A DNA stretch of 64,000 bases from Phreatobacter sp. (GTDB lineage: Bacteria > Pseudomonadota > Alphaproteobacteria > Rhizobiales > Phreatobacteraceae), in contig NZ_JAPZTZ010000003.1 of NCBI RefSeq assembly GCF_027532945.1, forward strand, positions 267,208 through 331,207, read 5' to 3'. A program made the translations under genes and the position numbers. Below, one piece after another: positions 45,257 through 61,660 of this stretch (position 1 is its first letter; every line of letters begins with the position of its first letter). The notes beneath the pieces are model-generated. The model made no database searches. It was not told where the DNA came from and saw only the letters and a program-made list of their open reading frames with translations.

Positions 45257-45337
45257 CGTAACGACCGAAATTATGTATTTTTATTGAAGTCAGGCAAGCC
45301 TTATCTCCGGCGGCACTCGTTGATCCCCGGAGTCGCC

Positions 45338-46900
45338 ATGTCGACCTTCATCCCCTTCGTGCAATTCGCACCGCTGGTGCTTCTCGGCGCCGCCGCCTTC
45401 GCCCTGGTGCGGCCCGGCCGCCGCCCCGGCGCCTATCCGGCCTTCGCGGAAGCCGCCGCCCTCGCCGCGCTCGGCCTCGCCCTCGCCTCCCTGATCCAGC
45501 TTCTCGTTCTCGGCCAGCGGGTGACGGCGGTCGGCGCCGGCCCCGCCCTGCTCGCGCTGCGGCTCGACGCGGTGAGCGCGACCATGACGGTGCTGGTCGG
45601 CTTCGTCGGCTGGATCGTGGTGCGCTACGCCCGCTCCTATCTCGACGGTGAGGAGCAGGAGGGCCGGTTCCACGGCCTGATGCTGGCGACGCTCGCGGCT
45701 GTGCTCCTGCTCGTCCAGTCCGGCAGCCTGGTCGTCCTCGCCGCGAGCTTCGTCGCGGTCGGCGCCGGCCTGAGGCGGCTCCTGATGTTCTACGGCGAGC
45801 GGGCTGAGGCGCGGCGCGCCGCCACCAAGTTCGCCCTCGTCTGGTTCGGCGGCGACGTGCTGCTGGTCCTCGCCGCCGCCCTGCTGTGGGTCGGCTTCGG
45901 GACCGCCGACCTCGGCGCCATCGGCGCGGCGGCGAAGGGCGGCCTGCCCCTCTCGGCCCACATCGCGGTCGCCTTGCTGGTCGTGGTGGCGGCGCTGAAG
46001 ACCGCCTCCTTCCCGCTGCACGGCTGGATCACCGAGGTGATGGAGGCCCCGACCCCGGTCTCCGCCCTCCTCCATGCCGGCATCATCAATGCCGGCGGCT
46101 TCCTGATGATCCGCCTCGCGGAGCTGGTGCAGGCGAGCTCCGGCGGCATGGCGGCCCTCGTCATGCTCGGCGGCCTCACCGCCCTGTTCGGCGCGGTGGT
46201 GATGCTCACCCAGAGCGCCGCCAAGACGGCGCTGGCCTGGTCGACCGTCTCGCAGATGGGCTTCATGCTGCTCCAGTGCGGCCTCGGCCTCTGGCCCCTC
46301 GCCCTCCTGCACATCGTCGCCCACTCGCTCTACAAGGCGCATGCCTTCCTCGCCGCCGGCGGCGCGGTAGAGGCGGTGGCCTCGATCCGGCGGCCCGGCC
46401 CGGTGGCGGTGCCCGGTGGCCTTGCGGTGGCGCGGTCCTTCGCGCTGGCCATCGTGCTCTACCTTGCGGTTGCCAGCCTCTTCGGCCTGGTCAGCGGCCA
46501 CAAGTCGGCCCAGGCCCTGGCGCTTGGCGCGATCCTGGTCTTCGGTGTCGCCTACCTTGTCGCCCAGGGCCTTGCCGACGCAGCCCCCCGCGAGCTCACC
46601 CGCCGCACGGCCCTCGCCTCCCTCGGCGCGGCGGTGGCCTATTTCGGCTTCCACCTGATCTCCGGGGCGATCTGGGGCCCGTATCTGCCGGCCGTGCCGA
46701 CCGCCGGCCCGCTGGAATGGGCGCTGATCATCCTCGCCCTCCTCTCCTTCGGCCTCGTGGCGGTCGCCCAGGCGCTCTTCCCCCTCTGGGCCCACCACCC
46801 GGCGGCGGCGGGCCTGCGCGTCCACCTCGCCAACGGCCTCTACCTCAACGCCGTCCTCGACCGGCTGATCGGCGGCTTCCGGGCCGCAAAAGCCCACTGA
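45338..46900 (+). CDS. dabB: DabB, membrane subunit of the DAB inorganic-carbon transporter
   Basis: A 520-residue protein of the NADH-quinone oxidoreductase NuoL/Mrp antiporter family with about 13 membrane spans. Ion-path residues are conserved: PLHGWITEVMEAPTPVSALLHAG (the PLHxWLPxAMxAPTPVSALLHA signature), KTALAWSTVSQMGFML and a Lys in VALLVVVAALKTASFPLHGW. The chosen ATG (45338) follows GGAG. It is followed 16 bp later by the DUF2309 gene dabA. DabA and DabB together accumulate dissolved inorganic carbon using a cation gradient; DabB moves the cation. NuoL proteins are about 600 residues, so this shorter form agrees with DabB. Confidence 0.9.
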   Translation: MSTFIPFVQFAPLVLLGAAAFALVRPGRRPGAYPAFAEAAALAALGLALASLIQLLVLGQRVTAVGAGPALLALRLDAVSATMTVLVGFVGWIVVRYARSYLDGEEQEGRFHGLMLATLAAVLLLVQSGSLVVLAASFVAVGAGLRRLLMFYGERAEARRAATKFALVWFGGDVLLVLAAALLWVGFGTADLGAIGAAAKGGLPLSAHIAVALLVVVAALKTASFPLHGWITEVMEAPTPVSALLHAGIINAGGFLMIRLAELVQASSGGMAALVMLGGLTALFGAVVMLTQSAAKTALAWSTVSQMGFMLLQCGLGLWPLALLHIVAHSLYKAHAFLAAGGAVEAVASIRRPGPVAVPGGLAVARSFALAIVLYLAVASLFGLVSGHKSAQALALGAILVFGVAYLVAQGLADAAPRELTRRTALASLGAAVAYFGFHLISGAIWGPYLPAVPTAGPLEWALIILALLSFGLVAVAQALFPLWAHHPAAAGLRVHLANGLYLNAVLDRLIGGFRAAKAH

Positions 46901-46916
46901 CCTCACGGAGAGCATC

Positions 46917-49292
46917 ATGTTGCTGAACCAGCCCCAGGTCGCCCCCGCCCGGTACGCCGCCCTCATCAAGGCCGCTGAAGCCGCCGCCCGCGCGATCCCC
47001 CCGGCCTTCCCGCTCTCGGCGACGGTCGCGGTCAATCCCTTCCTCGGCCAGACCGGCGAGGATTTCGCCACCGCCGCGGCGCGGCTCGCCCGGGTCGCCG
47101 GCGTGCCGCTGACCCGCAGCCGGCAGGACTACGCGGCGAAGATCGCCTCCGGCGAGATCACCGTCGAGGACCTGTCGGCGGCGCTCGCCGCCTCGGCCTC
47201 GGCGCTGAAGCCGAAGGACCTCGCCGCCCTCAAGGCGCGGCTGGCGACGCCGGAAGCCGCACCCGTCGCGCTGCCGACGGTGGCAGCGCTGGCCGCCGAC
47301 GCCACGGGAACGGACTGGCCGGCCCTCGTCGAGCGGTGCTTCGGCCTCTGGGCCGCCGGCCATTTCGACCGGGGCCAGGCGCTCTGGTCGCCGGCCCCCG
47401 GCCGCAGCGCCTTCTCGGCCTGGCGGGACTGGGCCGTCCACGACCTCACTCCGGAGATCGCTGGCCTCAAGGGCTTCTGCGCCCATGTGGCCGATGCCCC
47501 GGACACGCCGGAGCGGGCGATCCTTCGGGCTGCCGACAGCCTCGGCATCGGCGAGGCGGCGGCGGAGACGCTGTTCCACCGGCTCCTCAGCGATCTCGGC
47601 GGCTGGGCGCAGCACGCCCGCTGGCTGCTCTGGGAGGCCGAGCTCGGTGAGGCGACCGACACGACCATCACCGACCTGCTCGCCATCCGGCTGATCTTCG
47701 AGGAGGCGCTCCTTGCCCATGTCCCGGCCATCGCCGAGCGCTGGCAGCAGATCGTCGCCGCCCATGCCGCGCCGGTCGCAGCGACGCCTGACCAGGTGGC
47801 CGATGCGATCCTGCAGGACGCCGCCGACCGGGCGCATCAGCGGCGGCTTGCCGCGCAGCTCACGGGCATGGCCGGCGCGACAGCCCGGCCCGCCGTGCAG
47901 GCCGCCTTCTGCATCGACGTGCGGTCGGAAGTGTACCGGCGGGCGCTCGAGAGCCTCAGCCCGGAGATCGCCACCATCGGTTTCGCCGGCTTCTTCGGCC
48001 TGCCGCTGGCCCACCGGCCGCACGGCACGGACGAGGTCGCCAAGCACCTCCCCGTTCTGCTGAAGCCCGCCATGTTCACCTGCAGCCACGTCTCGCCTGA
48101 GGACGAGGCGACGAGCCGGATCGGCGCGCGGGCAACCCGCGCCTGGGGCCGGTTCCGGCAGGCGGCCGTCTCGTCCTTCGCCTTCGTCGAGGCCTCCGGG
48201 CCCCTCTACGGCGCCAAGCTCGTCAAGGACGCGCTCGGCTTCGGCGAGGCGCCGAAGCAAAACCCGCGGCCGCGGATCGATGGCGGCCTCACCGCCGAGG
48301 CCAAGGCGGCGACGGGCGCTGCGGTGCTGAAGGCGATGAGCATGACCGAGGGCCATGCCCGGCTGGTGCTGCTCTTCGGCCACGGCGCCAAGGTGACCAA
48401 CAACCCGCACGAGAGCGCCTATCATTGCGGCGCCTGCGGCGGCCAGACGGGCGAGGTCTCGGCGCGGATCCTCGCCGACCTCCTCAACGATCCGGAAACG
48501 CGGGCGGGCCTGCCGGCCCATGGCATCATCCTGCCCGAGGACACGGTCTTCGTCGCCGGCCTGCACGAGACCACGACCGACACGATCACCCTCTACCGCG
48601 ACATGGAGCTCGGTGGCCACGTGGCGGATCTCGTCCGCGCCGAGGCCTGGCTGTCCGAGGCAACCCGGATCACCCGGGCCGAGCGGGCGAAGCGGCTGCC
48701 GCGGGCCCATGCCGAGACCATCGCGCAGCGGGCGCTGGACTGGGCCGAGCTCCGGCCGGAATGGGGCCTTGCGGGCTGCGCCGCCTTCATCGCCGCGCCG
48801 CGGGCCGTCACCGCAACGACGGATCTCGGCGGCCGCGCCTTCCTGCACAGCTACGACTGGGAGGCGGATGAAGGCTTTGCCACGCTGGAGCTGATCCTGA
48901 CCGCCCCGGTGGTGGTCGCGAGCTGGATCAGCCTCCAGTACTACGGCTCCTCCGTCGCGCCCGACATGTTCGGTGGCGGCAACAAGCTGATCCACAACGT
49001 GGTGGGCGGGTTCGGCGTGGTGCAGGGCAATGGCGGCGTCCTCCGCACCGGCCTGCCCTGGCAGGCGGTCCACGACGGCGAGAGCCTCGCGCACGAGCCG
49101 CTGCGCCTCACCGTGATGATCGACGCGCCGCAGGAGGCGATTACGGCCATCCTCGACAAGCATGCGGGCGTCCGGCAGCTGTTCGACAATGGCTGGCTGC
49201 ACCTGCTGCGGCTGGAGAACGGCAAGGTTGCCGGCCGCTACCGGCCGGGCCTCGCCTGGGAAGGCGCCACGCCGCTGCGCTCGGCCGCCTGA
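46917..49292 (+). CDS. dabA: DabA (DUF2309), carbonic-anhydrase-like subunit of the DAB transporter
   Basis: A 791-residue DUF2309 protein, the cytoplasmic partner of DabB. In the studied Halothiobacillus protein zinc is held by two Cys, an Asp and a His in a beta-carbonic-anhydrase-like site. Here the matching residues appear as FCIDVRSE (Cys332, Asp334), GHG (His489) and YHCGACGGQ (Cys504), with the same 15-residue His-Cys spacing. The N-terminus has AVNPFLGQT, normal for the family. DabAB is thought to drive vectorial CO2 hydration, supplying bicarbonate. The start follows CGGAG. No Rubisco or carboxysome gene is in the window, so it may serve anaplerotic carboxylation. Confidence 0.93.
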   Translation: MLLNQPQVAPARYAALIKAAEAAARAIPPAFPLSATVAVNPFLGQTGEDFATAAARLARVAGVPLTRSRQDYAAKIASGEITVEDLSAALAASASALKPKDLAALKARLATPEAAPVALPTVAALAADATGTDWPALVERCFGLWAAGHFDRGQALWSPAPGRSAFSAWRDWAVHDLTPEIAGLKGFCAHVADAPDTPERAILRAADSLGIGEAAAETLFHRLLSDLGGWAQHARWLLWEAELGEATDTTITDLLAIRLIFEEALLAHVPAIAERWQQIVAAHAAPVAATPDQVADAILQDAADRAHQRRLAAQLTGMAGATARPAVQAAFCIDVRSEVYRRALESLSPEIATIGFAGFFGLPLAHRPHGTDEVAKHLPVLLKPAMFTCSHVSPEDEATSRIGARATRAWGRFRQAAVSSFAFVEASGPLYGAKLVKDALGFGEAPKQNPRPRIDGGLTAEAKAATGAAVLKAMSMTEGHARLVLLFGHGAKVTNNPHESAYHCGACGGQTGEVSARILADLLNDPETRAGLPAHGIILPEDTVFVAGLHETTTDTITLYRDMELGGHVADLVRAEAWLSEATRITRAERAKRLPRAHAETIAQRALDWAELRPEWGLAGCAAFIAAPRAVTATTDLGGRAFLHSYDWEADEGFATLELILTAPVVVASWISLQYYGSSVAPDMFGGGNKLIHNVVGGFGVVQGNGGVLRTGLPWQAVHDGESLAHEPLRLTVMIDAPQEAITAILDKHAGVRQLFDNGWLHLLRLENGKVAGRYRPGLAWEGATPLRSAA

Positions 49293-49443: not shown

Positions 49444-49490
49444 TTGACTTCGGCCGCCATCGTCTTGTAAGTAACTGGTGAGTTATATAC
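49444..49490 (+). promoter_or_regulatory. Promoter with TetR-type operator, catabolic operon
   Basis: A TTGACT hexamer (49444-49449) precedes a TAAGTA -10-like sequence (49468-49473, 18-bp spacing). Overlapping it is an imperfect 24-bp palindrome at 49467-49490 whose centre is TAACT-GGTG-AGTTA. The core GTAACYGGTGAGT also occurs upstream of the second operon (57156-57168). Overlap with the -10 region suits a repressor. The TetR protein encoded at 54493-55212 is the natural candidate. Confidence 0.6.
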
Positions 49491-49531
49491 GTCGCCACCT
49501 GAGAGCGACGGGCATGGGCAGGAGACCGAGG

Positions 49532-49702
49532 ATGGCGGCATCGCGCGCCGGGAGCACTGGGCTTGGCCGCTGGCTGAATGCCGCCTGGCTCAGCCCCTTC
49601 GGCATGCTCGCCCTGCTCAACCTCGCCTGGGACCTCGTGGCCTTTCCGGATCTCGCCAAGAAGGTCCGGGCGCATTTCTACGCTCAAGGGGGGATCGACT
49701 GA
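49532..49702 (+). CDS. Small single-span membrane protein coupled to the enolase-like gene
   Basis: A 56-residue ORF. The ATG at 49532 is preceded by AGGAG with 7-nt spacing, and the TGA overlaps the next ATG by one base (TGATG), so it is translated with the next gene. The sequence has one hydrophobic segment (LSPFGMLALLNLAWDLVAF) followed by a short basic, aromatic tail (LAKKVRAHFYAQ). It is the first gene of a TetR-type-controlled catabolic operon. Its role is unknown; a short membrane-anchoring or transporter-accessory role is only a guess. Confidence 0.6.
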   Translation: MAASRAGSTGLGRWLNAAWLSPFGMLALLNLAWDLVAFPDLAKKVRAHFYAQGGID

Positions 49703-51102
49703 TGGCCGCCCCGCGCACTCGCATTGCCGAGGCCGAAGCCTTCGAGCGCTGGACGCCCTTCGTGCGGCCGTTCCGTTTCGGAGCAGTCACGGTGGAAGGT
49801 GCCTTCCAGGCCTTCGTGCGCGTCGTCGTGGAGGTCGAGGGCCATGGCCGCGCCACCGGCATGACCGCCGAACTCATGCCGCCCAAATGGTTCGACAAAC
49901 GGGCGGAGCGCAGCACCGACGATACGGTGCGAGACCTGAAAAGCAGCCTCGCGGCGGCGGTGGCATCGACGCGCCACCTCGGCTGCGACACGGCCTTCGG
50001 GCACCATGTGCGGCTGCAGGAGGCGCAGGCGGACTGGGCGAAGGCCGCCGATGCCACCGCCCTCTCCGCCTCCTTCGGCGTCGCGCAGGTGGACAAGGCC
50101 GTGCTCGACGGATTGGCACGGGCGATGGGCCAAGGCTTCGTCGCAGTGCTCAAGGCCAATGCCGCTGGCATCGACGCGCGGTTGACGCCGGACCTGACGG
50201 AGGCTGCCATTGCGGCACGTCTCGCCGCCCTTTCCCCCGGCCGGTCCATCGCCATCCGTCACACGGTCGGCCTCACCGACCGCATCATCGGCGCCGACAG
50301 CCTCGCCTCCGAGATCGACGCCGCCGACCTCCGCTTCTTCAAGATCAAGCTCGGCGGGGATCCTGCCGCCGACATCGACCGGCTCCTCGCCATCGCAGCG
50401 CTCCTGGAGGCGCGTGGCATCGACTATCGCGCCACCGTCGATGCCAACGAGCAATATGCCCCCGATGCCCTCGTCGAGCTTCTTGCCCGTGCCGAGGCCG
50501 AGCCGCGGCTCGGCGGGCTCATGGCGCGCCTCCTCTTCATCGAACAGCCCTTCGACCGGCGCGTCACCTTCGAGCGGCCGCTGCCGCCAGCGGTGGCGGC
50601 GCGCGGCGTCATCATCGACGAGGCGGATGATGCCGACGACGCCTTCCCGCGCGCCAGGGCGCTTGGCTATCGCGGCGTCTCGTCCAAGTGCTGCAAGGGC
50701 CTCTACAAGGCGCTCATGAACACGGTGCGTGCCGCCGCCTGGAATGCCGGCAGCACCGGTGGCCCGGCCTTCCTCGTCTCGGCGGAGGACCTCACCTGCC
50801 AGGCGGGCCTTGCGGTCCAGCAAGACAGCGCCTTCGTCGCGGCGCTTGGCCTCACCCATGTGGAGCGCAACGGCCATCACTATGTCGACGGCTTCGCCGA
50901 GGCGCCCGCCGCCGAGGCCGAGGCGTTTCTTGCCGCCCATCCCGGGCTCTACGCCCGGACCGATCGCATCCGCCTCACTGTCGCGAGCGGACGGCTCGAC
51001 CTCTCCTCGCTGGACGGTCCCGGCTTCGCCAGCGCGGCGATGCCGGATGTCGCCCGCCTCTCCCCTCTCACAACCCTCCCCGCACAAGGACTACCCGCAT
51101 GA
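49702..51102 (+). CDS. Enolase-superfamily (mandelate racemase-like) protein
   Basis: A 466-residue protein. The C-terminal half has the enolase-superfamily barrel pattern: FFKIKLGGDP (KxK, Lys214 and Lys216), DANEQY (Asp247), FIEQPF (Glu281) and IIDEADD (Asp306/Glu307), the expected order of base and metal ligands. The N-terminal ~190 residues differ from typical members and form an unusually long capping region. Enzymes of this group abstract a proton alpha to a carboxylate and often dehydrate acid sugars. It begins at TGATG with a GGGGGG-type ribosome site and overlaps the dehydrogenase gene by 4 bp. Substrate is unknown, likely a sugar acid. Confidence 0.8.
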   Translation: MAAPRTRIAEAEAFERWTPFVRPFRFGAVTVEGAFQAFVRVVVEVEGHGRATGMTAELMPPKWFDKRAERSTDDTVRDLKSSLAAAVASTRHLGCDTAFGHHVRLQEAQADWAKAADATALSASFGVAQVDKAVLDGLARAMGQGFVAVLKANAAGIDARLTPDLTEAAIAARLAALSPGRSIAIRHTVGLTDRIIGADSLASEIDAADLRFFKIKLGGDPAADIDRLLAIAALLEARGIDYRATVDANEQYAPDALVELLARAEAEPRLGGLMARLLFIEQPFDRRVTFERPLPPAVAARGVIIDEADDADDAFPRARALGYRGVSSKCCKGLYKALMNTVRAAAWNAGSTGGPAFLVSAEDLTCQAGLAVQQDSAFVAALGLTHVERNGHHYVDGFAEAPAAEAEAFLAAHPGLYARTDRIRLTVASGRLDLSSLDGPGFASAAMPDVARLSPLTTLPAQGLPA

Positions 51103-52247
51103 CCAGGACCCTCGGCGTCGTGATGAACGGCGTGACCGGCCGCATGGGCACCAACCAGCATCTGGTGCGCTCCGTCGCCGCCATTCGCGCCCAGGGCGGC
51201 GTGCTGATGTCGGATGGCAGCCGCGTGCAGCTCGACCCGATCCTCATCGGCCGCAATGCCGACAAGGTTGCCGCGCTCGCCAAGGCCAATGGCGTCGAGC
51301 GCTGGTCGACCGACCTCGACGCGGCCATCGTCGATCCAAAGAACCACATCTTCTTCGACGCGGCGACGACGCAGATGCGCCCGACTCTGCTCGAAAAGGC
51401 CATCCATGCCGGCAAGCACATCTATTGCGAGAAGCCGATCGCCACGAACCTCCCCGAGGCGCTGAAGATCGTGAAGCTCGCCAAGGACAAGGGCATCAAG
51501 AACGGCACGGTGCAGGACAAGCTGTTCCTGCCCGGCCTGATGAAGCTGAAGGCGCTGCGCGATAGCGGCTTCTTCGGCAAGATGCTCTCGGTCCGCGGCG
51601 AGTTCGGCTACTGGGTCTTCGAGGGCGACTGGCAGACGGCGCAGCGGCCCTCCTGGAACTACCGCTCCGAGGATGGCGGCGGCATGATCCTCGATATGGT
51701 CTGCCACTGGCGCTACGTGCTCGACAATCTCTTCGGGCAGGTGAAGTCGGTCTCCTGCCTTGGCGCGACGCATATTCCGGAGCGCTGGGACGAGAACGGC
51801 AAGGCCTACAAGGCCACCGCCGACGACGCGGCCTATGCGACCTTCGAGCTCGAGGGCGGCGTCATCGCCCATATGAACATGAGCTGGGTGACGCGCGTCT
51901 ATCGCGACGATCTCGTCACCTTCAACGTCGACGGCACGCTGGGCTCGGCGGTGGCAGGCCTCCACGACTGCATGATCCAGCCGCGCAACGCCACGCCGCG
52001 TCCGGTGTGGAACCCCGACCAGAAGCAGACCATCGATTTCCGCTCGACCTGGCAGAAAATGCCGGACAACCAGAGCTACGATAACGGCTTCAAGGTGCAG
52101 TGGGAGATGTTCGTCCGCCACGTGGTGGAGGACGCGCCCTATTCCTACACGCTGATGGAAGGCGCCAAGGGTGTGCAGCTCGTGGAATGCGCGCTGCAGA
52201 GCTGGAAGGAGCGCCGCTGGATCGACGTTCCGAAGCTGACGGTGTGA
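51099..52247 (+). CDS. Gfo/Idh/MocA-family oxidoreductase
   Basis: A 382-residue NAD(P)-dependent sugar dehydrogenase-like protein. The start LGVVMNGVTGRMGTNQHLVRS corresponds to the Rossmann glycine motif (MNGVTGRMG), ALEKAIHAGKHIYCEKPIA carries the family EKP with catalytic Lys, and EDGGGMILDMVCHWRYVLDNLFG holds the usual GGG...D..H motif of the second domain. These enzymes oxidise a sugar, polyol or inositol hydroxyl to a keto group. It is coupled to the enolase-like gene (ATGA) and followed 26 bp later by DUF993, implying one catabolic route. Confidence 0.9.
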   Translation: MTRTLGVVMNGVTGRMGTNQHLVRSVAAIRAQGGVLMSDGSRVQLDPILIGRNADKVAALAKANGVERWSTDLDAAIVDPKNHIFFDAATTQMRPTLLEKAIHAGKHIYCEKPIATNLPEALKIVKLAKDKGIKNGTVQDKLFLPGLMKLKALRDSGFFGKMLSVRGEFGYWVFEGDWQTAQRPSWNYRSEDGGGMILDMVCHWRYVLDNLFGQVKSVSCLGATHIPERWDENGKAYKATADDAAYATFELEGGVIAHMNMSWVTRVYRDDLVTFNVDGTLGSAVAGLHDCMIQPRNATPRPVWNPDQKQTIDFRSTWQKMPDNQSYDNGFKVQWEMFVRHVVEDAPYSYTLMEGAKGVQLVECALQSWKERRWIDVPKLTV

Positions 52248-52273
52248 TGCGGGATCGAGAGGAGAGCCGACCG

Positions 52274-53458
52274 ATGCTCGACAAGACCAAGCTTGCCGCC
52301 AGCGTGCGGCTGCCGACCGCGGCGGGGACCATCGAGACCTACCGGCTCTCGGTGCCGCGCCAGTTCCCGGAGAAGGTGACAGGCCCGCTCAACCGCGTGG
52401 CGCTGGCCGCCACCCACATGGTCGCGAACCCGCTCGCCGACAACGATCCCTGGCTCACCAATGCCATCGACTGGGATCGGACCATGGCCTATCGCGATTA
52501 TCTCTGGGGCCTCGGCCTCGGGGTGGCGGAGGCCATGGACACGGCGCAGCGCGGCATGGGCCTCGACTGGGCCGGCGCGCTCGACCTGATCGGCCGGTCG
52601 GTGCGGCAGGCCAAGGCGACGCCCGGCGCGGTGGTGTTCTCGGGCGCTGGCACCGACCATCTCGACCCCGCCGCCGTGCGCAGCCTCGAGGAGGTGATCG
52701 CGGCTTACGAGATGCAGTTCGAGGCGATCGAAGCGCTTGGCGGGCGCATCATCCTCATGGCCTCGCGGGCGCTCGCCCGCGTCGCCAAGGGGCCGGAGGA
52801 CTATGGCCGCGTCTATGACCGCATCCTGTCGCAGGCCGCGCAGCCGGTGATCATCCACTGGCTCGGCGACATGTTCGATCCGGCACTCGCCGGCTACTGG
52901 GGCACGGCCGACCTCGACGCCGCCATGGACACGGCAGTGGACGTCATCAACCGCAACGCCGCCAAGGTCGACGGCGTGAAGATCTCCCTCCTCGACAAGG
53001 ACAAGGAGATCGCCATGCGGCGCCGGCTCGCGCCCTCGGTGAAGATGTATACCGGCGACGACTTCAACTACGCCGAGCTCATCGCCGGCGACGACAAGGG
53101 CTATTCCCACGCCCTGCTCGGCATCTTCGACGCCATCGCGCCGGCGGCAGCGGGCGCTCTCTCGGCGCTGGCCAACGGCGATCTCGCGACGTTCCATGAC
53201 ATCTTCGCGCCGACCGTGCCGCTGTCGCGGCACATCTTCAAGGCGCCGACCCGCTTCTACAAGACGGGTGTCGTGTTCGTGGCCTATCTCAATGGCCACC
53301 AGGACCATTTCACCATGGTCGGCGGCCAGGAAAGCACGCGCTCGACCCAGCATCTCGCCGAGCTCTTCCGTCTTGCCGATGCGGCCGGGATCCTGCGCGA
53401 CCCCGAGCGTGCCGCGGCGCGGATGGCGGCGGTCATGGCGACGCGCGGCGTGGCGTGA
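52274..53458 (+). CDS. DUF993 family TIM-barrel protein
   Basis: A 394-residue DUF993 protein, related in fold to dihydrodipicolinate synthase/aldolase barrels. Visible features: a long helix-rich N-terminus (AATHMVANPL, TNAIDWDRTMAYRDYLWGLGLGVAEAMDTAQRGMGLDW), VVFSGAGTDHL, GGRIILMASRALARVAKGPEDYGRVYDRIL, QPVIIHWLGDMFDPALAGYWG and VDGVKISLLDKDKE, where the Lys in VKISLLD is at the place of the Schiff-base lysine in class I aldolases of this type. The last step of a keto-sugar breakdown would fit such an aldolase. No function is established. Confidence 0.85.
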   Translation: MLDKTKLAASVRLPTAAGTIETYRLSVPRQFPEKVTGPLNRVALAATHMVANPLADNDPWLTNAIDWDRTMAYRDYLWGLGLGVAEAMDTAQRGMGLDWAGALDLIGRSVRQAKATPGAVVFSGAGTDHLDPAAVRSLEEVIAAYEMQFEAIEALGGRIILMASRALARVAKGPEDYGRVYDRILSQAAQPVIIHWLGDMFDPALAGYWGTADLDAAMDTAVDVINRNAAKVDGVKISLLDKDKEIAMRRRLAPSVKMYTGDDFNYAELIAGDDKGYSHALLGIFDAIAPAAAGALSALANGDLATFHDIFAPTVPLSRHIFKAPTRFYKTGVVFVAYLNGHQDHFTMVGGQESTRSTQHLAELFRLADAAGILRDPERAAARMAAVMATRGVA

Positions 53459-53491
53459 GGCGCTCAAGGCGAGGCGTCAACCTCTCCCTGG

Positions 53492-53582
53492 TGCCCGGGC
53501 TTGTCCCGGGCATCCATGACTTCCTGCGATCATTCCTGCGATGCCGTGTTCACGTCGTGGATGCCCGGGACAAGCCCGGGCA
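53492..53582. repeat. Long palindromic element (CCCGGGCA-type repeat)
   Basis: Two 29-base arms (53492-53520 and 53554-53582; starting TGCCCGGGCTTGTCCCGG) are inverted copies with one mismatch. Each arm is itself nearly palindromic (TGCCCGGG...CCCGGGCA). The 33-base loop has two direct TTCCTGCGAT copies (53521-53530, 53534-53543). Repeats built of CCCGGGCATnnnCG are widespread in intergenic regions of Hyphomicrobiales. It lies between the DUF993 and isomerase genes of one operon, so it may act in mRNA processing or attenuation there. Confidence 0.85.
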
Positions 53583-53621
53583 TGACGCGGCAAGGAATGC
53601 GGCCTGACCTCCGGTGCGTCC

Positions 53622-54488
53622 ATGCGCGATTTCTCCGCCGACCATTCCCTCCTCTCCATCAACACCGCGACGGTGCGCCAGCAGGGCGACCTCCTCGCCA
53701 TCATCGAAGGCTGCGTGCGCCATGGCATCCAGGCCATCTCGCCCTGGCGCGACCAGGTGGCGACGGTGGGGCTCGATGCCGCCGCCAAGGCGGTGCGCAC
53801 CCATGGGCTGAAGCTCTCCGGCTATTGCCGCGGCGGCATGTTCCCAGCTGATGCCTCCAAGAAGCAGGAGGCGCGCGACGACAACCGCCGCGCCGTCGAC
53901 GAGGCGGCAACGCTGGGCGCGGCCTGCCTCGTCCTCGTGGTCGGCGGCCTGCCGCAGTACTCGCGGCCCGGCTCGGCGGTCTCGCATGACCTCGGCGCGG
54001 CCCGCGCGCAGGTGGAGGACGGCATCGGCGAGCTCCTCGACCATGCGCGGGGCGCCCGGATGCCGCTCGCCATCGAGCCGCTGCACCCGATGTATGCGGC
54101 GGACCGGGCCTGCGTGAACACACTCGACCAGGCCCTCGACATCTGCGACCGGCTCGATCCCACACGCTCCGGCGCACTCGGCGTCGCGGCCGACGTCTAT
54201 CACATCTGGTGGGACCCGAACCTTTCCACCGCCATCCGCCGGGCAGGGCGCGAGCGGCTCCTCGCCTATCATGTCTGCGACTGGCTGGTGCCGACGCGCG
54301 ATCTGCTCACCGATCGCGGCATGATGGGCGACGGGGTGATCGAGCTGAAAAAGATCCGACAGGCGGTGGAGGCCGAGGGCTTCACCGGGTTCTCGGAGGT
54401 CGAGATCTTCTCGGCGCTGGACTGGTGGAAGCGGCCGATGGACGAGGTGCTTCAGACCTGCATCGAGAGGCACAGAAGCGTGGTGTGA
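53622..54488 (+). CDS. Sugar phosphate isomerase/epimerase family protein (xylose-isomerase-like barrel)
   Basis: A 288-residue TIM-barrel protein of the AP_endonuc_2/IolE-like group. Metal and active-site positions: LAIEPLHPMYAADRACVNT (Glu on strand 5), GVAADVYHIWWDPN (Asp..His, strand 6), LLAYHVCDWLVPT (His) and GFSEVEIFSALDWW (Glu). These enzymes isomerise or epimerise keto sugars. It ends the forward operon and is convergent with the TetR gene, with 4 bp between stops. A second, different member of the family is encoded at 55209-56048. Confidence 0.9.
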   Translation: MRDFSADHSLLSINTATVRQQGDLLAIIEGCVRHGIQAISPWRDQVATVGLDAAAKAVRTHGLKLSGYCRGGMFPADASKKQEARDDNRRAVDEAATLGAACLVLVVGGLPQYSRPGSAVSHDLGAARAQVEDGIGELLDHARGARMPLAIEPLHPMYAADRACVNTLDQALDICDRLDPTRSGALGVAADVYHIWWDPNLSTAIRRAGRERLLAYHVCDWLVPTRDLLTDRGMMGDGVIELKKIRQAVEAEGFTGFSEVEIFSALDWWKRPMDEVLQTCIERHRSVV

Positions 54489-54492
54489 GGCC

Positions 54493-55212
54493 TCAGGCCT
54501 TCACGCCGCGCAGCACGAACTCCACCACATGGGCGCGGCGCTCCGCGATGGAATCCGGGCTCTCCATGTCGGCGTCGAAGATCACCGACAGCGTGTAGAC
54601 GTTGGAGAAGAAGAAGTAGCAGATGCCGATGATGGTCACCCAGAGCTGGCGGGCGTCGAGCCCCGCGCGGATGGTGCCCTCGGCATGGCCGCGGGTGATG
54701 ATGCGCGCGATGGCGTCGATCACCGGCGAGTTCATCATGTTCACCCGCGCCGACTTCTTCAGCACCTTGGCGCGCTGGCGGTTCTCGGTGGCGAGCAGGT
54801 TGATGAAGGTGCGGTCGCGCACGAAGCTGTCGAAGGTGAATTCGGTGAAGCGGGTCAGTGCCTCAACGGGCTCCAGCCGGTCGAGATCCAGCTTCTGCTC
54901 GGCGGAGCGGGCGCGCTCATAGGCCGCCTCAAGAACTGCCAGATAGAGCAGCTCCTTCGAGGAAAAGTAGTGGTAGATCATGCGCTTGTTGATGCGCGCG
55001 CGGTCGGCGATGTCGTCGGTCCTCGCCCCCTCGTAGCCGCGATTGGCGAATTCGCGGGTGGCGACATTGAGGATGCGCGCGCGCGTGCCGGCGCTGTCGC
55101 GCTTGCGCACCGTCTTCTGCACCGCCTCCGTCACGCCCGTGTCGCCCCCTGCGGCCGAGGGACCGCGATTCGCCTCATTGCCGACACTGGCATGACCAGC
55201 CGGGTCCGTCAT
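54493..55212 (-). CDS. TetR-family transcriptional repressor
   Basis: A 239-residue regulator. A ~35-residue N-terminal extension precedes the TetR helix-turn-helix (TRARILNVATREFANRGYEGARTDDIADRARINKRMIYHYFSSKELLYLAVLEAAY). The C-terminal part fits the TetR_C ligand domain with LEPVEALTRFTEFTFDSFVRDRTFINLL. The start overlaps the upstream isomerase stop by 4 bp. It is the last gene of the reverse operon (Bug, isomerase, TetR). Similar operator-like sequences before this operon and the convergent operon suggest that it controls both and itself. Confidence 0.92.
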   Translation of the reverse strand: MTDPAGHASVGNEANRGPSAAGGDTGVTEAVQKTVRKRDSAGTRARILNVATREFANRGYEGARTDDIADRARINKRMIYHYFSSKELLYLAVLEAAYERARSAEQKLDLDRLEPVEALTRFTEFTFDSFVRDRTFINLLATENRQRAKVLKKSARVNMMNSPVIDAIARIITRGHAEGTIRAGLDARQLWVTIIGICYFFFSNVYTLSVIFDADMESPDSIAERRAHVVEFVLRGVKA

Positions 55213-56048
55213 GTCGCGGTATCCAGCGCCTCGAGGAGACCACGCACATAGCCGGCCGCCCGCGCCGCGCAGGCCGGTCCGTCCGGCTCGTAGATGAAGG
55301 GTTCGATGGCAATGTCGCCGCCATAGCCGGTCTCGCCGAGCGCACGGAGCACGGGCGCGAAGCGGTCGCGGCCCTCGCCGGGGCCGCGGCGGTTGGCATC
55401 GTTCAGCTGGACATGGGCGATGTGACCGGTCGGCATCCAGCGGCGGATGAGGTCCGCCACAGGTTCGGCCTCGCGGGCGGAGGCGGCGGAGGTATCGATC
55501 ATGGTGCGGAAGGCGGGATGGCCCACCGCATCGACCAGCCGGACGGCCTCAGCGACCGTCTCAATGAAGACGTTGTCGGGCGGTGCCAGCGGCTCGATGC
55601 AATAGGTGAAACCGCGCGCCGCGATCTCCTCCGTGAGCCCGGCGAAGAGGTCGCGGGCGCGGCCGAAGGCGACATCGGTCCCCTCCCCATCGGCCGGGCG
55701 GCGCTGGGCGGGCGAGCCATGGACGAGGACGCGGGCGCCGAGGCCCGCGGCAAGATCGAGAAGGCCGAGGATGACGTCGCGGGTGCGGCCGCGCAGCTCC
55801 GCGTCGGGCGAGACGATGGAGAGGCCCGGCGGCGTCACCAGCAGCCAATGCAGACCGGTGACGGCGAGTCCGTGATCCTCGACGGTGCGGCGCGCCGCGG
55901 CGATGGCCGCAGCGGAGAGCCGGTGAGGCTCCTCTGACAGCGTGAACGGCGCGATCTCAAGGCCGTCATAGCCGACGGCCCGGGCGAAGGCGCATTGCCG
56001 GGCGAGGTCCCAGGGCGCGAGCACCTCGTTGCAGAGGGAAAGGCGCAT
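55209..56048 (-). CDS. Sugar phosphate isomerase/epimerase family protein
   Basis: A 279-residue xylose-isomerase-like TIM barrel. Features: MRLSLCNEVLAPWDLARQCAFARAVGYDGLEIAPF, ARVLVHGSPAQRRPADG, FTYCIEPLAPPDNVFIETVAEAVRL (Glu), MIDTSAASARE and GHIAHVQLNDANRRGPGEGRDRF (His, Asp), ending in YGGDIAIEPFIYEPDG (Glu). The GHIHxNDxNxRGPGxG pattern is frequent among 3-keto-sugar and hexulose epimerases. It lies 36 bp after the Bug gene and overlaps the TetR start, so it belongs to the same regulated unit. Confidence 0.9.
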   Translation of the reverse strand: MRLSLCNEVLAPWDLARQCAFARAVGYDGLEIAPFTLSEEPHRLSAAAIAAARRTVEDHGLAVTGLHWLLVTPPGLSIVSPDAELRGRTRDVILGLLDLAAGLGARVLVHGSPAQRRPADGEGTDVAFGRARDLFAGLTEEIAARGFTYCIEPLAPPDNVFIETVAEAVRLVDAVGHPAFRTMIDTSAASAREAEPVADLIRRWMPTGHIAHVQLNDANRRGPGEGRDRFAPVLRALGETGYGGDIAIEPFIYEPDGPACAARAAGYVRGLLEALDTAT

Positions 56049-56084
56049 CGCGCGTGTCCTGGGATCGGGCGAGGTCCGCGGCCC

Positions 56085-57071
56085 TCAGGGGACGCGGATC
56101 TCGGCGGCGCGGATGACCTCGCCCCACTTGGCGACGTCGGCGGCATGGACGCGGCGCAGCGCCTCGGGCGTGCGGTCGGCCTCGGCCGGGGCCTCGGCGC
56201 CGAGCTGGAGGAAGCGCGCGGTTGCGGCAGGATCATCGATGGCCCGGCGCAGGGCGGCGTTGAGCGCGGCAATGATCGGGGCTGGCGTCGCCTTGGGCGC
56301 GAAGACCGCGTTCCAGACCACCATTTCGACGCCCTCCATGCCGGCTTCCCGCGCGGTGGGGACATTGGGCAGGACCGGCGAGCGGGTCGGCGCCAGCACG
56401 GCAACAGCCTGCACGGCGCCCGCCTGGACCTGCCCCATGAGGCTGGTCACCTGGTCGCAGATATAGCCGACATTGCCGGCGACGAGATCCTGGATGGCCG
56501 GCCCTGTGCCGCGATAGGGCACCGAGGTCGAATTGGCGCCGATGCGGCGGTTCAGCAGGGTGCAGGCGAGGTGGGAGGTCGATCCGACGCCGGCATTGCC
56601 GTTGTTGATGGTGGCGGCATTGGCCTTCAGATGGGCCGAGAACTCCGCGAGCGTCTTGGCCGGGAGAGCCTTGTTGGCGACCAGGAGGATCGGCGCCGAG
56701 GCGGCGATCCCGATCGGCTCGAAGTCGGTCAGGACATTGAAGGCAAGGTTGGGATAGAGCGCTGGCGAGAAACTCATGGTGCTCATCGGGCCCATGAGGA
56801 TCGTGTGGCCATCGGGATCGGCGCGGGCGACGCGGTTGGCGCCTGTCGTCCCGGCGGCGCCGGCGACGTTCTCGACCACGACCTGCTGGCCCAGCGTCTG
56901 GCTCATGCGCTCGGCAACGATGCGGGCGACGATGTCAGTCGGACCGCCCGGTGCGAAGGGCACGACCATGGTGATCGGCCGCGACGGGAAGGCCTGGCCA
57001 AAGGCGGGGGCGACGGCGAACGGCGAGACGGCGACGAGCAGCGCCGCGACGGCGCATCTCCTTGAAATCAC
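56085..57071 (-). CDS. Bug/TctC-family periplasmic substrate-binding protein
   Basis: A 328-residue secreted Bug protein, first gene of the reverse operon. It begins MISRRCAVAALLVAVSPFAV with cleavage near AFGQAF, then ITMVVPFAPGGPTDIVARIV, VVVENVAGAAGTTG and GHTILMGPMSTM. As in other Bug loci, no membrane subunits accompany it. Its place next to sugar isomerases and under the putative TetR operator makes a sugar acid or related carboxylate a reasonable ligand, by inference. Confidence 0.88.
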   Translation of the reverse strand: MISRRCAVAALLVAVSPFAVAPAFGQAFPSRPITMVVPFAPGGPTDIVARIVAERMSQTLGQQVVVENVAGAAGTTGANRVARADPDGHTILMGPMSTMSFSPALYPNLAFNVLTDFEPIGIAASAPILLVANKALPAKTLAEFSAHLKANAATINNGNAGVGSTSHLACTLLNRRIGANSTSVPYRGTGPAIQDLVAGNVGYICDQVTSLMGQVQAGAVQAVAVLAPTRSPVLPNVPTAREAGMEGVEMVVWNAVFAPKATPAPIIAALNAALRRAIDDPAATARFLQLGAEAPAEADRTPEALRRVHAADVAKWGEVIRAAEIRVP

Positions 57072-57151
57072 AGCTTCCTCCAGGACATTTGGCGCGGTGC
57101 CCGCGCTTCTTGTCCCGGACGATAAACAGCCCCTCGGGCAGCGTCAATGAA

Positions 57152-57175
57152 GTATGTAACCGGTGAGTGCATTGG
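57152..57175 (-). promoter_or_regulatory. Second TetR-type operator copy, Bug-isomerase-TetR operon
   Basis: The plus-strand core GTAACCGGTGAGT (57156-57168) differs from GTAACTGGTGAGT at 49471-49483 by one base, and flanking GTA and AT bases also agree. On the minus strand a TTGACG hexamer follows about 4 bp downstream of this element, with a plausible -10 (TATCGT) 17 bp further on. It is about 85 bp before the Bug start. Confidence 0.55.
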
Positions 57176-58125: not shown

Positions 58126-58278
58126 CGCCCCAAAGCCGGGCGGGCCCACCGCCCGGTGCATGTCCTCCATTCGGGAATGGCGGGGCGCTGGCGCCTCGAA
58201 CCGCCCTAGCCTGCCCTCTTGGGGAAACCCACGATCCGCGCGGTTCTAGAGACGCGGACGGGCCAGGAGGAGATCAGG

Positions 58279-59367
58279 ATGAAGCGCAGAACATTCATGG
58301 CTGCCGGCGCGACAGGCGCGGTCGCCGCAACCGTTGCCGCCCCCGCCATCGCCCAGACCCTGCCGGAGGTCAGCTGGCGCTGCGCCTCGTCCTTCCCGAA
58401 ATCGCTCGACGCGCTCTATGGCCCGCTCGACACGATGACGAAGCAGATCGCCGAGGCGACCGATGGGCGTTTCAAGATCCAGTGCTTCGCTGCGGGCGAG
58501 ATCGTCGGCGCCTTCCAGACGCTGGACGCGGTCTCGGCCGGCACGATCGAGATGTGCCAGTCGCCCGGCTACTATTTCGTCGGCAAGGACCCGGTCCTGG
58601 CGCTGATGGCCGACGTGCCCTTCATCATGAACGTGCGCCAGCGCAACGCCTGGCTCTATCAGGGCGGCGGCCAGCAGCTCATCAACGACTACGTCAAGAA
58701 GTACAACGTCCATACCGTGCCTGGCGGTAATACGGGCACGCAGATGGGCGGCTGGTTCCGCAAGGAGGTCCGCACGCTCGACGACCTCAAAGGGCTGAAG
58801 TTCCGCATCGCCGGCCTTGCCGGCCAGGTCATGGCCAAGCTCGGCGTGGTGCCGCAGCAGATCCCCGGCGGCGATACCTATTCCTCGCTGGAGCGCGGTG
58901 TCATCGACGCGGCCGAGTGGGTCGGGCCCTATGACGACGAGAAGCTCGCCTTCGTCCGGGTCGCTCCCTACTACTATTATCCCGGCTTCTGGGAGGGCGC
59001 GCCGACGGTCCATTACTGGATCGGCCAGGACAAGTGGAACGCCCTGCCGAAGTCCTATCAGCAGATCTTCAACAATGCTGCGGCGGCCAACAACATGGAC
59101 ATGACCGCCATCTATGATGCCCGCAATCCGGCGGCGCTCCGGCGCCTCGTGGCGGCCGGCGCGCAGCTCCGGCCCTTCAGCACCGAGATCCTCGATGCGG
59201 CCTTCAAGGCGGCGAATGAGATCTATGCCGAACTCTCGGCCGGCAATGCCGATTTCAAGCGGATCTACGAGCACATGCGGGCGTTCCGGAACGAGGAATA
59301 CCTGTGGTGGCAGGTCGCCGAGTACTCGTTCGACACGATGATGCTGCGGCTGCGCCAGCGCGGCTGA
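58279..59367 (+). CDS. TRAP transporter substrate-binding protein (DctP family, TakP-like)
   Basis: A 362-residue secreted TRAP binding protein. ATG 58279 follows GGAGGAG and starts MKRRTFMAAGATGAVAATVA with a twin-arginine-type signal, cut near AIAQ. Recognisable parts: VSWRCASSFPKSLDALYGPLDTMTKQIAEATDGRFKI, TVPGGNTGTQMGGWFRKEV, DLKGLKFRIAGLAGQVMAKLGVVPQQIPGGD, LERGVIDAAEWVGPYDDEKLAF and YYYYPGFWEG. This wording matches alpha-keto-acid-binding TakP-like members. The small and large membrane subunits (dctQ, dctM) are not in the window. Confidence 0.92.
   Translation: MKRRTFMAAGATGAVAATVAAPAIAQTLPEVSWRCASSFPKSLDALYGPLDTMTKQIAEATDGRFKIQCFAAGEIVGAFQTLDAVSAGTIEMCQSPGYYFVGKDPVLALMADVPFIMNVRQRNAWLYQGGGQQLINDYVKKYNVHTVPGGNTGTQMGGWFRKEVRTLDDLKGLKFRIAGLAGQVMAKLGVVPQQIPGGDTYSSLERGVIDAAEWVGPYDDEKLAFVRVAPYYYYPGFWEGAPTVHYWIGQDKWNALPKSYQQIFNNAAAANNMDMTAIYDARNPAALRRLVAAGAQLRPFSTEILDAAFKAANEIYAELSAGNADFKRIYEHMRAFRNEEYLWWQVAEYSFDTMMLRLRQRG

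Positions 59368-59470: not shown

Positions 59471-61660
<2,190 letters not shown>

What the first reader, a model, noticed from the sequence alone, without database searches (positions are those of the whole stretch)
49444..57175. Uncharacterised sugar(-acid) catabolic regulon under a shared TetR-type operator
Two convergent operons encode a small membrane protein, an enolase-superfamily enzyme with a long cap, a Gfo/Idh/MocA dehydrogenase, a DUF993 aldolase-like barrel, two isomerase/epimerase barrels, a Bug protein and a TetR repressor. GTAACYGGTGAGT stands before both operons. The gene set makes a full hypothetical route: uptake, oxidation to a keto sugar, epimerisation, dehydration and aldol cleavage. 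No known pathway with exactly this set is recognised.
Basis: partly seen in the sequence, partly recalled or inferred. Interest (0 to 1): 0.7.

Follow-up and report, generated by a model that had tools for sequence, protein, structure and literature searches.

The report
Sugar-acid regulon with deleted transporter
A Phreatobacter-like bacterium carries two facing gene sets, each preceded by the same short DNA box that occurs nowhere else in its genome; a repressor encoded there is predicted to act on both boxes, the enzymes, kept together in many related bacteria, likely break down an unidentified sugar-like acid by a route we found no description of, and the apparent first gene is the scar of a deleted transporter.

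Summary
Two convergent operons carry GTAACYGGTGAGT at 49471 and 57156, the only exact copies in the 4.13 Mb genome, with none at one mismatch. Of 12 Phreatobacter genomes, 11 have exactly two copies of the extended box; the reversed control gives 0 in all 12. Enolase, Gfo/Idh/MocA dehydrogenase, DUF993 and isomerase A keep their order in 74 of 80 loci; enolase and DUF993 co-occur in 24 of 385 genomes, 2.6 expected. The enolase matches no NCBIfam model but has the fold and active-site residues of muconate-lactonizing-type enzymes. Substrate, reaction order and TetR binding are inferred. No held paper contains 'DUF993' or 'PF06187'. Verdict: a real, conserved, narrowly controlled catabolic regulon, undescribed in the searches made, built from known superfamilies.

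The parts
49444..49449 (+). TTGACT, putative -35 of the enzyme operon
   Evidence: TTGAC is invariant in 11 of 11 anchored sequences; read by eye, the consensus scan did not report this promoter
49471..49483 (+). left operator GTAACTGGTGAGT, overlapping the putative -10; centre of a wider imperfect palindrome from 49465 to 49488
49532..49702 (+). 56-codon in-frame scar: first 35 residues of an ABC permease, 5 residues of unclear origin, last 16 residues of the ABC ATPase
   Evidence: only the window's own protein found in the protein collection
49638..49651 (+). deletion junction: 14 bases in place of 2,558 bases of relative L157
49702..51102 (+). enolase-superfamily enzyme, muconate-lactonizing-like fold
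51099..52247 (+). Gfo/Idh/MocA dehydrogenase, E=1e-204 to solved but unassigned 3oqb
   Evidence: EKP at residue 111 and LDMVCH at 198
52274..53458 (+). DUF993, DHDPS-like barrel, candidate Schiff-base lyase with K236
53622..54488 (+). isomerase A, xylose-isomerase-like barrel, near SMc04130 (3ju2)
54493..55212 (-). TetR-family regulator
55209..56048 (-). isomerase B, ketose 3-epimerase-like barrel
56085..57071 (-). Bug/TctC solute-binding protein
57119..57147 (-). promoter-like TTGACG-17-TATCGT of the Bug operon
   Evidence: 1 found in the stretch, 0.5 expected; conserved in relatives
57156..57168 (+). right operator GTAACCGGTGAGT, 8 bases upstream of that -35

Best explanation
The locus is a two-operon cluster whose two operator boxes are the only exact copies in the genome; a TetR protein encoded inside it is predicted to bind both, and the enzymes likely degrade a carboxylated sugar or polyol to three-carbon compounds. 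Predicted control: without inducer TetR would sit on the left box, which overlaps the putative -10 of the enzyme operon, and on the right box just upstream of the -35 of the Bug-isomeraseB-TetR operon, shutting the first and adjusting its own. Inferred route: the Bug protein would hand the acid to a TctAB permease encoded elsewhere; the Gfo/Idh/MocA enzyme would oxidise a hydroxyl; the two isomerases would move or invert keto and hydroxyl groups; the enolase would take the proton beside the carboxylate with its lysines and eliminate to a 2-keto-3-deoxy-type acid; DUF993 would hold this as a Schiff base on K236 and split it. Shown directly: gene content, box positions and exclusivity, conservation of boxes and gene order, and loss of the ABC transporter that most relatives carry here.
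Against: No substrate, activity, binding or expression data. 5 of 29 enolase genomes lack DUF993 and 11 of 35 DUF993 genomes lack the enolase. G385 keeps the Gfo-DUF993-isomeraseA-TetR-Bug block with one box and no adjacent enolase; Xanthobacter L044 shows no dehydrogenase hit. Glycerate kinase is in 0 of 4 annotated loci that have both enolase and DUF993. The profile comparison of DUF993 with DHDPS is not significant (Prob 0.5, E 0.11) and its model is poor (pLDDT 58). The left promoter was not reported by the scan. The two-operon layout with Bug was seen only in Phreatobacter-like loci.
Confidence: 0.6

Rival explanations
1. A cyclitol route like inositol breakdown: the dehydrogenase makes an inosose, isomerase A works like IolI/IolE, and enolase plus DUF993 handle a ring-opened acid.
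For: Best NCBIfam match of the dehydrogenase is IolG (71 bits) and of isomerase B IolO (63 bits); isomerase A matches IolI weakly; an IolB-like gene stands near an enolase relative in Rhizobium.
Against: All these matches are far below the curated cut-offs (355, 300); the dehydrogenase matches levoglucosan dehydrogenase almost as well (61 bits); no iolD/iolC-like gene is in the block.
Confidence: 0.15
2. A cycloisomerase route for a cyclic or aromatic-derived acid, with the enolase acting like muconate lactonizing enzymes.
For: Closest folds are muconate and chloromuconate lactonizing enzymes and dipeptide epimerases; NMT1-type ABC systems of relatives can carry aromatic or sulfonated acids (recalled).
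Against: Identity to these is only 14-22%; the partners are sugar-type barrels and a Gfo/Idh/MocA enzyme; some relatives use sugar-type ABC transporters.
Confidence: 0.1
3. The box is the site of another regulator and the TetR protein controls something else.
For: No binding test. In Bradyrhizobium-type loci TetR lies before the same operon but the box differs.
Against: The box occurs only at this locus in 11 of 12 congeners and one copy stands before the operon that holds tetR; where the enolase end is lost in G385 the copy next to the Bug-TetR genes stays.
Confidence: 0.1
4. The 56-codon ORF is a working small membrane protein that regulates or assists uptake.
For: Open frame, start-site region and the TGATG overlap with the enolase are intact; the fusion is in frame.
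Against: Both ends are those of two ABC genes of relatives; no other protein in the collection matches it.
Confidence: 0.05

Closest known systems
Oxidative hexuronate pathway of Agrobacterium (Udh, Gli, Gci, KdgD); PMC6353982, passages read
   Same: Oxidation first, then a cycloisomerase giving a 2-keto-3-deoxy acid, then a dehydratase step; that Gci is of the enolase superfamily and KdgD of the DHDPS superfamily is recalled.
   Different: Here the dehydrogenase is Gfo/Idh/MocA, the enolase matches no NCBIfam model, the lyase is DUF993, and two xylose-isomerase-like enzymes are added.
Inositol catabolism (iol)
   Same: Gfo/Idh/MocA dehydrogenase plus xylose-isomerase-like barrels and an aldolase-type last step.
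   Different: Curated cut-offs for IolG and IolO are missed by far; an enolase-superfamily enzyme is central.
S. meliloti SMc04130-SMc04133 region (solved proteins 3ju2 = SMc04130, 4dnh = SMc04132)
   Same: TetR, Gfo/Idh/MocA, DUF993, enolase relative and isomerase in one stretch (L122).
   Different: Sugar-type ABC and further Gfo/Idh/MocA genes, enolase after DUF993; unassigned too, met only in a proteome table (PMC12542648, passage read) and, for SMc04134, in network lists (PMC11387232, passages read). Gene numbers other than 04130 and 04132 are assigned from gene order and recall.
Tripartite tricarboxylate uptake of alginate oligosaccharides in Vibrio sp. C42 (PMC13390454, passages read)
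   Same: A tripartite-type binding protein serving sugar-acid uptake.
   Different: There a transporter and known alginate enzymes; here an orphan Bug and an unknown pathway.

Membership tests
Enolase superfamily, muconate-lactonizing-like | capping domain plus barrel fold | tested here: met
Enolase superfamily, muconate-lactonizing-like | three acidic metal ligands and K-x-K / K catalytic lysines | tested here: met
   D247, E281, D306, K214, K216, K329 invariant in 33 sequences; the first five aligned to solved dipeptide epimerases; K329 follows model strand 325-327; the role of each residue is recalled
Pfam PF13378 (MR_MLE_C) | curated gathering score | tested here: not met
   22.4 of 29.4 bits; many listed relatives carry PF13378. 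Not filed under this model
DHDPS/NAL superfamily (for DUF993) | barrel fold | tested here: inconclusive
   Foldseek rank 1 is 4dnh, then DHDPS-type entries at E 8e-7 and weaker, from a pLDDT 58 model
DHDPS/NAL superfamily (for DUF993) | Schiff-base lysine | tested here: inconclusive
   K236 invariant and aligned with the invariant lysine of 5 DHDPS-family proteins, but the comparison is not significant
Inositol 2-dehydrogenase IolG | NCBIfam TIGR04380 cut-off | tested here: not met
   71 of 355 bits
Gfo/Idh/MocA oxidoreductases | N- and C-terminal domains over cut-off | tested here: met
   PF01408 39.1 of 24; PF22725 85.3 of 27; PF02894 52.7 of 22.9 bits
TetR regulators | TetR_N domain and TetR C-terminal domain | tested here: met
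   PF00440 55.8 of 24; PF17938 127.9 of 26.2 bits
TetR regulators | binding of the two boxes and release by a ligand | not testable with these tools
   needs a gel shift
Tripartite tricarboxylate transporter | TctC/Bug binding protein | tested here: met
   PF03401 203.4 of 27 bits
Tripartite tricarboxylate transporter | TctA/TctB beside it | tested here: not met
   the three TctA matches of the genome lie on other contigs
SsuABC/TauABC-type ABC transporter (first genes in most relatives) | permease, NMT1-type binding protein and ATPase before the enolase | tested here: not met
   present in 74 of 80 loci and in L157, only the scar in the window; closest binding-protein matches elsewhere in the genome 24-30% identity

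The most novel reading that the evidence does not exclude
An undescribed carbon pathway, widespread in Alphaproteobacteria, whose core is a new enolase-superfamily family acting just before the uncharacterised DUF993 lyase; the enzymes stay together while the uptake system is a swappable cassette (NMT1-type ABC, tripartite tricarboxylate, sugar ABC), and in Phreatobacter the ABC cassette has been cut out at least twice under an unchanged operator, once leaving an in-frame 56-codon scar that keeps enolase translation coupled, with an orphan Bug taking over.
Probability: 0.6. Interest if true: 0.65.

Novelty: new variant of a known kind. Interest (0 to 1): 0.5.

Why it matters
It ties two protein families for which no reaction was found here (this enolase branch and DUF993) to one conserved, narrowly controlled pathway, which makes both testable: the inducer of the TetR and the ligand of the Bug or ABC binding protein should name the substrate. 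Solved but unassigned structures (3oqb, 4dnh, 3ju2) would gain functions. The transporter deletion shows how a catabolic regulon can change its uptake route while promoter, operator and enzymes stay in place.

Tried and rejected
Considered and rejected: the small membrane protein as a gene (scar); a wider regulon (no further site at 0 or 1 mismatch; the palindromic form finds only the left site, with 1 control hit); the inositol pathway proper (cut-offs missed).

Led nowhere: papers for DUF993 (0), PF06187 (0), 4dnh/3oqb (0), the gene set in words (0). SMc04131, the presumed S. meliloti enolase, had no occurrence in the two papers listed. Searches gave general papers; none of the 10 rows shown held the word Phreatobacter. 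My lead that the pAO1 plasmid cluster was studied as a xylose pathway is recalled and was not confirmed (the 15 rows shown did not show it). A palindrome count over 145 upstream regions gave no word common to all genera. The two box patterns counted (60 and 9 of 74; random windows of the same loci 23 and 5 of 1480) were drawn up after seeing sequences, so those counts are descriptive. The 385-genome sample is fairer, but its Fisher value does not correct for kinship. In 8 of its 24 co-occurring genomes the two genes are not within 10 kb. The plasmid neighbourhoods were picked by me, not drawn at random, and one more bears no annotation.

Full report
1. The observation. The region holds the genes and boxes described. 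Pfam names the dehydrogenase, DUF993, both xylose-isomerase-like barrels, TetR and Bug/TctC above their cut-offs; the enolase-like protein reaches PF13378 only below its cut-off (22.4 of 29.4 bits) and no NCBIfam model. The genus is inferred from names of the closest proteins: Phreatobacter, with DUF993 97% identical to a P. oligotrophus entry.

2. The boxes. GTAACYGGTGAGT is exact at 49471 and 57156. In the whole genome these are the only exact sites; none has one mismatch, and the 34 with two mismatches are at the level of the reversed control (43 in all). The extended box GTAWGTAACYRGTGAGT, up to one mismatch, occurs exactly twice in 11 of 12 genus genomes and once in the twelfth, with 0 control hits in all 12. 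On the loci, the left box was seen in 10 of 10 relatives with this arrangement and the right box in 9 of 9 whose stretch reaches it, at up to one mismatch (one of them, L166, shows no isomerase B hit); the truncated one (G388) has its second copy on another contig. In anchored alignments of 11 sequences each, mean conservation is 0.92 in the 13 box columns against 0.67 (left) and 0.69 (right) in the flanks. The geometry differs between the ends and is kept: left, TTGAC, then the box over the putative -10; right, the box lies 8 bases upstream of TTGACG-17-TATCGT. Only the right promoter was reported by the consensus scan, with 0.5 expected by chance. Full repression of the enzyme operon and a milder effect on the Bug operon is inference.

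3. Beyond the genus. At the same place before the first operon gene other genera carry related palindromes: Rhodomicrobium L058 a perfect 22-base one (TGTAATTCACCGGTGAATTACA), Xanthobacter, Ancylobacter and Microvirga imperfect ones (TAATT type, 9 of 74 loci), Bradyrhizobium and kin mostly TATCCAACGGGTTA or close to it (60 of 74); 5 of 74 have neither. Most share an AC-N2-GT centre. The exact core TNACYRGTNA was found in only 2 of 74 regions before the permease and 0 of 71 before tetR. This suggests an old regulator-operator pair that drifted, but the patterns were drawn up after looking.

4. The scar. Relatives L039, L041 and, closest, L157 have a permease, an NMT1-type binding protein and an ATPase between the left box and the enolase. 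Against L157 (neighbouring genes 89-99% identical, enolase 92%) the window matches up to 49637 and again from 49652; 14 bases stand in place of 2,558. The 56-codon ORF reads 31 of 35 residues of the permease start, 5 residues of unclear origin and then, in frame, the identical last 16 residues of the ATPase, keeping the TGATG overlap with the enolase. No close copy of the binding protein is elsewhere in the genome (nine matches of 24-30% identity). A separate subgroup (L158-L162, 5 genomes) also shows no ABC hit, with the box 84-85 bases before the enolase match. As L157, the nearest relative by identity, keeps the transporter, at least two losses are implied; no tree was built. The ORF has one match in about 5.8 billion proteins, itself, listed on 3 contigs.

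5. The gene set elsewhere. Enolase, dehydrogenase, DUF993 and isomerase A stand in order in 74 of 80 named loci, a TetR relative in 75 of 80, and the three ABC genes before the enolase in 74 of 80. In a sample of 385 genomes of the window's class the enolase is in 29 and DUF993 in 35, both in 24 against 2.6 expected; 16 of the 24 have them within 10 kb. Isomerase B lies beside the enolase in 24 of 29 loci fetched from that sample with short flanks. Transport varies: three-gene ABC (Chelatococcus), tripartite system, sugar-type ABC (S. meliloti). The enolase is in 12 of 12 genus genomes, but G385 holds only a distant copy at another place, while its Gfo-DUF993-isomeraseA-TetR-Bug block with the right box stands alone.

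7. Known or new. The nearest described scheme is the oxidative hexuronate pathway (passages of PMC6353982). The parts are of known superfamilies; the combination, this enolase family and DUF993 are not assigned in anything found. New variant of a known kind.

Noticed in passing
window 45284-49292 +: The genes just upstream are a DabA (PF10070, 823 bits) and a proton-antiporter-type partner, so a likely DabAB inorganic-carbon uptake pair.
   Followed up: partly
window 58219-59367 + and 59471-61639 -: A TRAP-type DctP binding protein and a peroxidase-family gene, 722 aa, KatG-like by length and sequence, flank the regulon; no box before them.
   Followed up: no
L176 (G385, 4491000-4510900): In one congener the enolase and the left box are gone and the rest of the regulon stays with the right box; a distant enolase-isomeraseB pair lies elsewhere (L167).
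   Followed up: partly
L121 and L169 (Rhizobium plasmids): Relatives of the enolase (about 40-44% identity) stand with an oligopeptide-type ABC system, an IolB-like isomerase, a glycosyl hydrolase (GH39 in L121), a TIM barrel protein and a hydroxyacid dehydrogenase.
   Followed up: partly
L131, L132, L134, L136: DUF993 plus isomerase stand beside an acyl-CoA dehydrogenase and a ketoacyl reductase, in three of the four (not L132) also beside electron-transfer flavoprotein genes: another unexplained setting of DUF993.
   Followed up: no
L133 (Streptomyces plasmid): A DUF993 gene sits directly before a type I polyketide synthase gene.
   Followed up: no
L044 (Xanthobacter sp. YC-JY1): DUF993 follows the enolase directly and no Gfo/Idh/MocA or isomerase A hit was seen in the stretch, an exception to the conserved block.
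   Followed up: no
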